Assembly: GCF_017565645.3 (NCBI RefSeq)
Contig: NZ_CP086136.1
Location: forward strand, 8,415,501 to 8,479,500
Direction of reading: 5' to 3'
DNA from: Bradyrhizobium barranii subsp. barranii
Lineage (GTDB): Bacteria > Pseudomonadota > Alphaproteobacteria > Rhizobiales > Xanthobacteraceae
Length of the DNA stretch: 64,000 nt
In this document: positions 35,573 through 39,731 of the stretch, in pieces
How positions within the stretch are numbered: the stretch's first letter is position 1
How the letters are laid out: every line of letters begins with the position of its first letter
Translations under genes and position numbers: made by a program
Notes under the pieces: generated by a model
What the model was told of the DNA's origin: nothing
Database searches by the model: none
Seen by the model: the letters and a program-made list of their open reading frames with translations, nothing else

Positions 35573-35614
35573 AGGCGGCGCAATTTCGTAAGGGATGGCA
35601 GACTTTCGCCACAT

Positions 35615-35701
35615 CGTCATTGCGAGGAGCTCTTGCGAAGAAACAATCCAGACTGCCTCCACAGAGAGATTCTGGATTGCTTCGCTACGCTCGCAATGAC
35701 G
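35615..35701. repeat. intergenic palindromic repeat, family A, copy 2
   Basis: CGTCATTGCGAGGAGC, AACAATCCAGA, TCTGGATTGCTTCG and CTCGCAATGACG in the same order and spacing as the copy at 30136-30221. Lies between the MmgE/PrpD gene and the DUF418 gene. Confidence 0.85.
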
Positions 35702-36909: not shown

Positions 36910-36924
36910 CCAAGGTCCCTCCGC

Positions 36925-37011
36925 CGTCATTGCGAGGAGCACTTGCGACGAAGCAATCCAGACTGCCTCTGCGAAAAGACTCTGGATTGCTTCGCTGCGC
37001 TCGCAATGACG
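36925..37011. repeat. intergenic palindromic repeat, family A, copy 3
   Basis: CGTCATTGCGAGGAGCACTT, AAGCAATCCAGA, TCTGGATTGCTTCGCTGCG and CTCGCAATGACG. Placed between the convergent DUF418 gene and the split enolase-superfamily gene. Confidence 0.85.
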
Positions 37012-37485
37012 GAGTGTGGTGCAGCAGTCGGGCTACTCCGCCAGCGCCTTCATTTCCTTGTAGAGATCCGACTTGCCTTCGAAGCCGATGCCCGGCAGGT
37101 CGGGCATGGTGATGTGGCCGTTCTCGACGCGCACGCCATCCGGGAAGCCGCCGTAGGGCTGGAACAGGTCGGGATAGCTCTCGTTGCCGCCGAGGCCGAG
37201 GCCGGCTGCGATGTTGAGGGACATCTGGTGGCCGCCGTGGGGGATGCCGCGGCTCGGCGACCAGCCGTAGGTTTTCAGGACCTCCAGCGTGCGCTGGTAT
37301 TCGCAGAGGCCATAGGACAGCGCGCAGTCGAATTGCAGCCAGTCGCGGTCGGGACGCATGCCGCCGTAGCGGATGAGGTTGCGCGCGTCCTGGTGGCTGA
37401 ACAGGTTTTCGCCCGTGGCCATCGGGCCCGGATAGAATTCGGCGAGCGCGGCCTGCAGCGCATAGTCGAGGGGATCACCGACCTC

Positions 37486-37777
37486 CTTATATGATGATTG
37501 GTCAAGCCATCGGCTCTCCATTGTTTTGCTCCATTAGTTTGGCCTCCAGTATCCAGGTGAACCCAGGTCTTTCCTCGACCGGTAAACAGCCGGGACAACC
37601 TTATATCCGGTCGCTGCGCCAAGCAGCGGCACCACATTCCCGCATTCGATGGGCTGGGCTCAGGAAGGCGCTACCATCCTCATACTCGGCTGTTTAAGCC
37701 AAAGAAGACTTCCGGTTCGCCCGCCTGGATCTGCTGAAGCTGATCAGGCTTCAGTAGATGACGATGTGGAGCAGTTT
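37486..37777 (-). ncRNA. candidate bridge (seek) RNA region of the IS110-family element
   Basis: 292 bases downstream of the transposase, with no open frame of note. It has two clean stem-loops: CGCTGC-GCCAA-GCAGCG at 37612-37628 and CTGAAGC-TGATCAG-GCTTCAG at 37734-37754, plus an ACCGG/CCGGT pairing around 37578-37612. In IS1111-type elements the RNA that pairs with target and donor DNA is made from this end. The assignment rests on position and structure; the pairing loops have not been mapped. Confidence 0.45.
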
Positions 37778-38938
37778 CTACGCATTCTTCAGCTTCGCCC
37801 CGTCAATCACGACGCCAACCGTCACATATTTCCACAAAGCAACGAGTAGTTTGCGGGCGAGTGCGACAACGATTTTCTTGCGCTGGGCAGAACCACTCGA
37901 TGCTGCTCGCTGCCGGAACCAGCGGGTTAGCGCAGAATCAGGCTGATGGCGCAGCCAGAGCCAGGCCAGCTGTATCATCGTGGTGCGTAACCGCGGGTTG
38001 CCAGCTTTCGACACTCCTTGATCACGATCAACGGATCCGCTCTGCCACGGTGTTGGTGCTAATCCCGCGTAAGCCGCGATTTGTCGGCGATTGTCAAAGT
38101 GCCTGTAAAAGCCTTCCGTCCAGAGCAGAGATGCGAACTCAGGTCCGATACAACGCACGTTCTCGAGCATGGAAATGGCGCTATTTGCCTCTTTCCGTTC
38201 GGACGCCAGAAGCTTATCGCGCTCCGCCTCGATCACTTTGATCTGCTCGATCACCAATTCAAGACGGTCAAGTTCTCGCGATATCTGGGCTTTCAAGAAA
38301 GGTGCGAGCGGCCGACCATCGCCAGTGCGAAGCTCTTCGAGGCGAGATCGTCGATCGCGATTCAGTGGTCGGTAGCCCGAAATACCTTGTGCGAACAGAA
38401 GTCCCTCAATCCGGTTGACGTGCGTCAGTCGCTCGACAACCAGGGCTTTCCTTTCCCGGACGAGCCGACGCCGGTCTTCCTCGTCATGGGATGGAATCCG
38501 AACCATCGCACATGTTCGTGGCTCACCCCGTTTGAACGACATAAGTGCGCGGACGAGTGTTTCTCCGTCGATACGATCGGTTTTAGCTCGGCGTGCTTTT
38601 CTGGGCACCGCTATCGATGTCGCATCCACCACATGGCTCTCAACACCTTCGTCGGCCAAGACGCGATGGACCCAGAACCCATCAAGGCCTGCCTCCTGGA
38701 TAACGATCACGGGGAGCCAAGAATCGGTCTTACGGTGCGCCCTGGCGCGGAGCTCGTTGAGCAAGCTGAGCAGCCGTCCGATCTGGCCGGCTGGGAGACC
38801 CTTCCGCGCCATCTTGGTATCGATGGCCGGCACGAATGAAGTCACCAGCCAAGTTGACTGGCTCAACTCCACCGAGACGTAAATTGCCTTGGCTACATCC
38901 ATCCGGGTTTCCGCTGCTTGCTGAGACATCACTTTCAT
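37778..38938 (-). CDS. IS110-family transposase (DEDD/RuvC-like recombinase)
   Basis: 386 residues. The N-terminal DEDD half contains the acidic residues E24 (SVELSQSTW), E82 (VIQEAGLDGFWV), D121 and D124 (KTDRIDGETLVRAL); the spacing D-x2-D fits the family, although the first position is Glu where Asp is usual. The C-terminal Transposase_20 half has YAGLAPTPWQSGSVDR and SKAGNPRLRTTM, which includes the conserved Ser region used as nucleophile. A helical linker (about 140-250) joins them. Together with a guide RNA from the downstream end, such enzymes insert the element at a specific target. The frame is full length and looks active. Confidence 0.93.
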   Translation of the reverse strand: MKVMSQQAAETRMDVAKAIYVSVELSQSTWLVTSFVPAIDTKMARKGLPAGQIGRLLSLLNELRARAHRKTDSWLPVIVIQEAGLDGFWVHRVLADEGVESHVVDATSIAVPRKARRAKTDRIDGETLVRALMSFKRGEPRTCAMVRIPSHDEEDRRRLVRERKALVVERLTHVNRIEGLLFAQGISGYRPLNRDRRSRLEELRTGDGRPLAPFLKAQISRELDRLELVIEQIKVIEAERDKLLASERKEANSAISMLENVRCIGPEFASLLWTEGFYRHFDNRRQIAAYAGLAPTPWQSGSVDRDQGVSKAGNPRLRTTMIQLAWLWLRHQPDSALTRWFRQRAASSGSAQRKKIVVALARKLLVALWKYVTVGVVIDGAKLKNA

Positions 38939-39731
38939 CTGTACTCGCTCCCCATGATTACGACTTGCCCAGCCTTTCGCCGGCCGGCGCCGACGTCAAT
39001 CATGGGACTCGTACCAGAACAGCGGATAGTCCCGCAGCATCTTGGCGTAGGCGATACCGGTCTCGAGATCGAAGCGGCCGTTGGCATCGACCGCGAGCTG
39101 CGCGTCCTTGCCGATCTCCTTCAGCACCGCCTCGATGCGGGTGCGGTCGTCCTCGATCGACGCGCCGCCGATCTTCATCTTCACGACGTTGTAGCCGCGA
39201 TCGAGATAGCCGCGCAGCATCGAGAGATCCTTGCCGGGATAGTAGTAGCCGCCGGCGGCGTAGACGAAGACGCGCGGATTTGCTTTCACGCCGTGACGTT
39301 CGGCGAGCAGCCGGAACAGCGGCTTGCCTGCGATCTTCGCCACCGCGTCCCACACCGCCATGTCGATGGTGCCGACTGCGACCGAGCGCTCGCCATGGCC
39401 GCCCGGCTTCTCGTTGGTCATCATCGCGGCCCAGACCTTGTCGGGGTCGAGATTGTCACCGGCCGCATTCAGTAGCGACTTCGGATCGGCCTCCAGGATG
39501 CGCGAGGCAAAGCGCTCGCGGATCAGGCCGCCCTGCCCGTAGCGGCCGTTGGAGTTGAAGCCGTAGCCGACGACGCGCTTGCCGTCGCGGACGACGTCAG
39601 TGACGACGGCGACGAGGCTCGTCGTCATCTTGGTGAAGTCGATATAGGCGTTGCGGATCGGCGAAGAGATCGGTTTCGTGATCTCGCGGACGTCAACGAT
39701 ACGGACGGACATGGGCTTGGCCTTTCACTTT

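What the first reader, a model, noticed from the sequence alone, without database searches (positions are those of the whole stretch)
37486..37777. Likely bridge/seek RNA locus in the 3' non-coding end of the IS element
The transposase leaves about 290 non-coding bases downstream and only about 70 upstream, the IS1111-type layout in which the guide RNA is made from the downstream end. Two clean stem-loops (37612-37628, 37734-37754) are present. If right, the loops should pair with the interrupted target around 37480-37487/39008-39015 and with the element's own ends, so the insertion site here provides a ready test.
Basis: partly seen in the sequence, partly recalled or inferred. Interest (0 to 1): 0.72.

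Follow-up and report, generated by a model that had tools for sequence, protein, structure and literature searches.

The report
Jumping gene's built-in guide RNA
A small bacterial jumping gene carries, just behind its enzyme gene, the blueprint of an RNA whose four short segments match the DNA site it inserted into and its own two ends, so it very probably uses that RNA to choose where to jump.

Summary
The finding holds. The element (37488-39009, minus strand) is an IS110-superfamily IS with 71 bp before and 290 bp after the transposase gene; four copies lie in the own genome. Copies and 84-85% relatives interrupt GGTAYG-AG-GANGWY at 10 distinct sites. The 3' non-coding region encodes a conserved RNA (found in 33 of 37 held-out relatives; 17 of 42 base pairs changed on both sides). 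In 30 target-distinct relatives two target segments pair with their own flanks far better than with swapped flanks. Two donor segments track the ends: LDG equals the right end in 41 of 45, RDG follows the left end in 58 of 60 AGAT-type ends. Order RTG, LTG, RDG, LDG: the IS1111-type target order. The window's own right flank pairs with one mismatch and two wobbles. So: a well-supported guide-RNA locus in a lineage for which I found no description. Expression and activity are untested.

The parts
37488..39009 (-). whole IS element (1522 bp, counting the left copy of the AG core)
   Evidence: four copies in own genome with the same ends and different flanks; nine plasmid records hold it full length at 99.9-100%
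37778..38938 (-). transposase gene, 386 aa, PF01548 + PF02371; E24, E82, D121, D124, S300
39008..39009 (-). left core dinucleotide AG
37486..37487 (-). right core dinucleotide AG
38939..39007 (-). left end (LE): TCCCATGATTG..., pairs with RDG; carries the -10-like half of the junction promoter
37488..37777 (-). 3' non-coding region encoding the guide RNA
   Evidence: conserved in relatives
37552..37733 (-). guide RNA core as matched by covariance model R1 (129.8 bits; the window was one of its 34 training rows)
37734..37754 (-).
   Evidence: two-sided changes
37714..37722 (-). target stem, 5' strand
   Evidence: helix 1: 92.2% of cells paired, 6 of 9 pairs with two-sided changes
37667..37675 (-). 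target stem, 3' strand
37702..37709 (-). right target guide (RTG) GUCUUCUU, pairs with top strand AG-GANGWY of the right flank
37688..37700 (-). inner target hairpin GGC-UUAAACA-GCC between RTG and LTG
37679..37685 (-). left target guide (LTG) GUAUGAG, same sense as left flank GTAYG-AG
37656..37662 (-). donor multiloop closing helix, 5' strand (UGAGCCC)
   Evidence: helix 3: 94.0% paired, 6 of 8 pairs with two-sided changes
37558..37564 (-). donor multiloop closing helix, 3' strand (GGGUUCA)
37636..37641 (-). right donor guide (RDG) GGGA-AU, pairs with LE AG-TCCC
37600..37606 (-). left donor guide (LDG) AUAUAAG, equal to the right end
37486..37492 (-). right end (RE) ATATAAG matched by LDG (includes core)
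37500..37505 (-). -35-like TTGACC in RE; in a circle it lies 17 nt from CATGAT in LE
38999..39004 (-). -10-like CATGAT in LE, in register with the -35-like box only after the ends are joined
39010..39712 (-). 5' part of the interrupted enolase-superfamily gene (MR_MLE)
37033..37485 (-). 3' part of the interrupted MR_MLE gene

Best explanation
The 290-bp region after the transposase gene encodes a bridge/seek-type guide RNA. One internal loop (RTG 37702-37709 and LTG 37679-37685 around a small hairpin) reads the chromosomal site GGTAYG-AG-GANGWY on both strands. A second, multiloop part (RDG 37636-37641 and LDG 37600-37606 around hairpin 37612-37628) reads the element's own joined ends ATATA-AG-TCCC. 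The DEDD-like recombinase, bound to this RNA, would pair target with the circular element and exchange strands at the shared AG core. Joining the ends in the circle places TTGACC 17 nt from CATGAT, a likely promoter for transposase and RNA. Shown here: conservation, structure, guide/DNA covariation, site specificity. Inferred: transcription, binding to the transposase, strand exchange, circle formation.
For: Seven sites of copies with >=99% identical transposase and three of 84-85% relatives share one motif. 30 target-distinct relatives: RTG score own 7.22 vs 4.78 swapped, largest of 20000 permuted means 5.73; LTG 6.30 vs 4.22, largest 5.03 (the search zones were chosen after seeing the alignment, the same for own and swapped). 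LTG match by position outside the core 0.97, 0.87, 0.84, 0.84, 0.68 own vs 0.23-0.26 swapped, near chance beyond (31 groups). L078 and L081 have 88.6% identical transposases and share none of the 13 compared flank bases. LDG identical to the RE 7-mer in 41 of 45. RDG: LE C with RNA G in 50 of 50 and LE T with RNA A in 8 of 8; 2 further AGAT-type ends, with G or A there, do not fit. Structure: 90.0% of cells paired, 17 of 42 pairs changed on both sides, 1 of 500 shuffles as high, slid controls 27.5-43.7% paired. Model R1 finds 33 of 37 held-out lineage loci at E<1e-3 and 0 of 12 reference loci.
Against: For the window's own right flank (AGGAGGTC) RTG pairing is imperfect: 5 Watson-Crick, 2 wobble, 1 mismatch over 8, and the best unguided match anywhere in its NCR is another, conserved stretch. 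Searching the whole NCR, the best match began in the RTG zone (55-90 nt after the stop) in 21 of 30, one of them (L048) probably not its RTG, and in the LTG zone (80-115) in 22 of 30. Without the core the own left flank ranks first in only 8 of 30. RTG distance to LTG varies by several nt. The structure was drawn from the same sequences. Counts are not corrected for relatedness. The minimum-energy fold of the window sequence alone is not the conserved fold. No expression data.
Confidence: 0.93

Rival explanations
1. The 3' region is only a structured untranslated region or terminator of the transposase mRNA, and flank matches are chance.
For: Hairpins and good folding energy alone would be expected.
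Against: Guide segments are variable columns of the RNA and follow each element's own flanks and ends, not swapped ones.
Confidence: 0.03
2. The RNA guides target choice, but ends are recognised by the protein through sub-terminal repeats, so RDG/LDG are not functional guides.
For: sTIR-like ends exist: exact run from ATG own mean 5.8 vs 4.0 swapped (42 elements). RDG rests mainly on one C/T position.
Against: LDG equals RE in 41 of 45, including the rarer ATACAAG (2) and ATATGAG (4) types; the window subgroup has LE and RDG each one nt shorter.
Confidence: 0.12
3. RTG in the window is the conserved stretch CCUUCCU 3' of LTG (IS110-type order LTG then RTG).
For: CUUCCU pairs AGGAAG; it is the best unguided match for the window.
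Against: That stretch is conserved in relatives with quite different targets, while the 5' segment changes with the target.
Confidence: 0.04

Closest known systems
IS621 bridge RNA system (IS110 group; Durrant 2024 PMC11208160, structure PMC11208158)
   Same: DEDD-like recombinase with serine, RNA with target and donor guide pairs, shared core dinucleotide, promoter at the joined ends; closest solved folds with ISCro4
   Different: RNA lies after, not before, the gene; guide order RTG-LTG-RDG-LDG instead of LTG-RTG-LDG-RDG; core AG, which is CT on the other strand; Glu for IS621 D11; donor guides in a multiloop
IS1111 group seekRNA elements (ISEc11, ISPa11, ISKpn4; Siddiquee 2024 PMC11187229)
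   Same: downstream NCR, RTG-type segment 5' of LTG-type segment, sub-terminal repeats with 7- or 6-bp left and 3-bp right extensions
   Different: transposase 386 aa against 330-350 aa, separate deep clade from IS4321/IS5708; first catalytic residue Glu; repeats shorter; model R1 finds no IS4321 or IS5708 RNA
IS110-family subgroup with downstream NCR ('green' group, Fig. 1b of PMC11187229)
   Same: IS110-family transposase with NCR after the gene
   Different: its members and guide order are not given in the parts I read; identity with this lineage cannot be decided

Membership tests
IS110 superfamily (RNA-guided DEDD recombinases) | RuvC-like domain plus PF02371 Tnp domain with serine | tested here: met
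IS110 superfamily (RNA-guided DEDD recombinases) | DEDD tetrad with Asp first | tested here: not met
   Glu at the IS621 D11 column in 92 of 93 lineage proteins; E60 93 of 93, D102 92 of 93, D105 93 of 93, S241 91 of 93 with 2 gaps. Too small a change to deny membership of the superfamily
bridge/seek guide RNA | non-coding RNA with segments pairing both strands of the target around the core | tested here: met
bridge/seek guide RNA | segments pairing the element's own joined ends | tested here: met
   (LDG 41 of 45; RDG at one position 58 of 60 AGAT-type ends)
bridge/seek guide RNA | RNA expressed and bound by the transposase | not testable with these tools
   no expression data
IS1111 group | long NCR downstream of the gene | tested here: met
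   290 nt after vs 71 nt before
IS1111 group | top-strand complement 5' of bottom-strand complement in the RNA | tested here: met
   RTG 37702-37709 is 5' of LTG 37679-37685 on the minus strand
IS1111 group | sub-terminal inverted repeats, usually 11-13 bp, 7 (or 6) bp left and 3 bp right extension | tested here: inconclusive
   extensions fit (left 7 in 37, 6 in 4, other in 1 of 42; right 3 after the core in 42 of 42), but the exact repeat averages 5.8 bp and is 5 bp in the window
IS1111 group | transposase in the IS1111 clade, 330-350 aa | tested here: not met
   386 aa; 20-row clade (100/100) apart from the 9-row clade holding IS4321 and IS5708 (99/99)
a described Rfam family | match to a curated RNA family | tested here: not met
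   no match at gathering score in the window; one chance-level hit, E 3.5, in 37400-39100

The most novel reading that the evidence does not exclude
This is one member of a third, deep lineage of RNA-guided recombinases, found mostly in Alphaproteobacteria, that combines an IS1111-like layout and guide order with its own transposase clade and a Glu-Glu-Asp-Asp active site. Because flipping the DNA turns RTG-LTG-RDG-LDG into LTG-RTG-LDG-RDG and AG into CT, the ribonucleoprotein may meet DNA exactly as IS621 does, with gene and RNA simply facing the other way relative to the recombination site.
Probability: 0.5. Interest if true: 0.65.

Novelty: new variant of a known kind. Interest (0 to 1): 0.5.

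Why it matters
It gives a natural data set in which all four guide positions of an RNA-guided recombinase can be read from sequence (30 target-distinct elements), in a lineage whose transposases lie far from IS621 and IS4321. A fixed Glu in place of an aspartate that binds metal in IS621 offers a direct test of what the active site tolerates. The AG core and reversed order offer a simple test of whether IS110 and IS1111 layouts differ in mechanism or only in gene orientation. For this genome it explains why copies sit at one motif.

Tried and rejected
My first guess for RTG (CCUUCCU, 3' of LTG) was dropped once relatives showed it conserved whatever the target. A first position scan used an anchor that matched too early in some elements and gave diluted signals; replaced. 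A first donor idea, RDG in GGGUUCA near 37558, was dropped: that stretch is the conserved closing helix. Rfam gave nothing. The idea that every IS1111 core reads as the flipped IS621 core is not supported: in IS4321 the junction overlap, read by eye against the uninterrupted Tn21 repeat as I recall it, is a T and not AG; I keep the flip only for this lineage. An outer extension of the target stem competes with the donor closing helix for three columns and both are well paired; I could not decide between a switch and stacked helices. Site saturation: no free GGTAYGAGGAVGWY in the own genome, but 37 of the 98 genus genomes searched, the own one included, have none, so nothing follows. Literature searches listed nothing that I recognised as a study of this lineage or of Glu in the DEDD motif; only a CC-licensed PMC library was searched, ISfinder was not, so this is weak. 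Read: parts 1-3 of 9 of PMC11187229 and passages; section 12 and passages of PMC11208160; passages of PMC11208158; other papers only as search listings. No IS110-proper transposase (395-455 aa) was at hand for the tree.

Rows dropped: from the 80 loci kept of 341 confirmed hits, the 30 loci and the own copies, 74 non-redundant representatives remained (which aligned only 40 of them and whose output was cut). 42 of 74 had one unambiguous pair of ends. 41 of these (L021 left out) gave the 30 target groups; all 42 gave 31 groups. Alignment A1 used 49 and A2 34 of the 60 representatives listed. In one search, 45 of 74 were scored for LDG and 65 of 74 for RDG. In one search the held-out misses are L014, L021, L025 and L062. 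One search used 9 of 12 reference proteins.

Full report
What is there. The minus strand of 37778-38938 encodes a 386-residue transposase with PF01548 and PF02371 and NCBIfam's IS110 RNA-guided transposase model (203.8 bits). It splits an enolase-superfamily gene whose two halves both match MR_MLE_C. Three further copies, printed as 100% identical, lie in the own genome (one of them differs by about one residue in the protein, 99.7%). Nine records of Bradyrhizobium plasmids hold it full length at 99.9-100%. Ends were read by comparing copies: left ...GGTACG[AG]TCCCATG, right ATATA[AG]GA.... The 120 bases of joined flanks are found as one stretch in 92 of 97 other genomes searched in the genus, and as two pieces overlapping by two query bases, the AG core, in the own genome.

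Target. Seven distinct sites of copies with >=99% identical transposase and three of 84-85% relatives all fit GGTAYG-AG-GA[ACG]G[AT][CT], except that one relative (L040) has AA instead of AG at the right junction. The joined site reads WYE or RYE in one frame at all ten, but which frame is really used was not tested for every gene.

Relatives. A genome scan confirmed 341 loci and kept 80; a family search found matches in 19 of 296 genomes. Downstream regions align along most of the RNA (40 of 74 representatives, output cut; 49), with variable stretches on both sides of a GGC-loop-GCC hairpin. Most ends follow AG-AT[CT]C[CT]ATGG... and ...CAT[AG]T[AG]-AG.

Guides. For 30 target-distinct elements the segment before the hairpin pairs with the element's own right flank (mean score 7.22 against 4.78 for swapped flanks; no permuted mean of 20000 above 5.73) and the segment after it matches the left flank (6.30 against 4.22; none above 5.03). 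The zones searched were chosen after seeing the alignment. The own flank ranked first in 16 of 30 (RTG) and 22 of 30 (LTG); with the core left out, in 19 and only 8. With a fixed anchor, the LTG footprint is five bases plus AG: own match rates 0.97, 0.87, 0.84, 0.84, 0.68 against 0.23-0.26 (31 groups). Transposases as alike as 88.6% (L078, L081) share none of 13 compared flank bases, which is natural reprogramming. In the window RTG is 37702-37709 and LTG 37679-37685. Over eight bases RTG pairs without mismatch, wobbles allowed, with four of the seven sites of the >=99% copies and with one mismatch with three, the window's own AGGAGGTC among the latter.

Donor guides. The RNA heptamer of type AT[AG]T[AG]AG equals the right end of the same element in 41 of 45; the other four differ at one base. 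The RNA stretch GCGG[GA]A, 5' of the next hairpin, pairs with the left end: LE C with RNA G in 50 of 50, LE T with RNA A in 8 of 8; two elements with G or A there do not fit, and five ends of other types were not counted in this (65 scored). In the window subgroup both LE (AG-TCCC) and RDG (GGGA-AU) lack one base relative to the others (AG-ATCCC, GGGAU-AU), a matched length change. These counts are not corrected for relatedness; the T type occurs in L012, L053, L091, L089 and the L016/L017/L019/L033 group.

Structure. A hand-made structure of 42 pairs on 34 rows gives 90.0% paired cells, 17 pairs with changes on both sides (1 of 500 shuffles as high) and 27.5-43.7% paired when slid. RNAalifold on a separate 49-row alignment found the 5' hairpin and the target stem unaided, 28 pairs, 14 of them changed on both sides in at least one row; it did not find most of the donor part. 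The hand-made structure was derived from these sequences, so it leans towards them. A covariance model from the 34 rows finds 33 of 37 held-out lineage loci at E<1e-3 on the strand of the transposase, 22 of them at 100-189 bits and 11 at 28-57 bits whose transposase is 41-61% identical, two of these cut short (identities). It finds 0 of 12 reference loci, IS4321, IS5708 and IS621 included, with a weak hit (E 0.07) in L135; three antisense matches appear in lineage loci at E 0.003, 0.025 and 0.54. In the own genome it finds the four copies and four further places at 50-53 bits.

Promoter. Joined ends give TTGACC-17-CATGAT in the window; over 42 elements the best junction-spanning site averages 7.83 of 12 consensus bases against 6.40 for shuffles, maximum of 200 shuffled means 6.71.

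Relation to known systems. The order RTG then LTG matches the IS1111 rule of PMC11187229, the multiloop for donor guides matches the remark in PMC11208160, but the transposase does not fall with IS1111. I therefore say that it works like an IS1111/IS110 guide RNA and is a variant lineage, not a core IS1111 member. Both 2024 papers surveyed ISfinder, so relatives may be in their tables without being discussed in the passages that I read.

Noticed in passing
37778-38938 (residue 24 of the transposase): Glu replaces the first catalytic Asp of the DEDD motif in this lineage (92 of 93 proteins), although the window's element is multi-copy and evidently mobile.
   Followed up: partly
37569-37585: The RNA of the window subgroup carries UCGAGGAAAGACC or UGAGGAAAGACC (one relative has AAAUACC), close to the target CGAGGAAGAC, and the minimum-energy fold pairs this side of the RNA with the RTG side; possible self-target or autoinhibition.
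   Followed up: no
37552-37733 (alignment A2 columns 8-11, 81-84, 211-213): CCUG at the join of target and donor parts can pair with either CAGG upstream or CAG downstream; columns 9, 83 and 212 change together from A, U, A to G, C, G in four elements (L091, L065, L012, L053).
   Followed up: partly
own genome G000:C1:10127228, C3:176911, C3:201030, C1:8756481: Four further guide-RNA places at 50-53 bits; two of them lie beside a 40-41% identical transposase, one of which has an internal TGA.
   Followed up: no
NZ_CP088278.1 and NZ_CP049700.1 (hits H70, H71): Two Bradyrhizobium barranii plasmid records have three matching places each; the best place covers only query 494-1522, so by coordinates the guide RNA is kept but the transposase is cut.
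   Followed up: no
36915-37015: A palindromic intergenic repeat of the type GTCATTGCGAGGAGC...GCTCGCAATGAC, seen by eye; a similar one seems to lie near 35600-35680, judged only from ORF translations.
   Followed up: no
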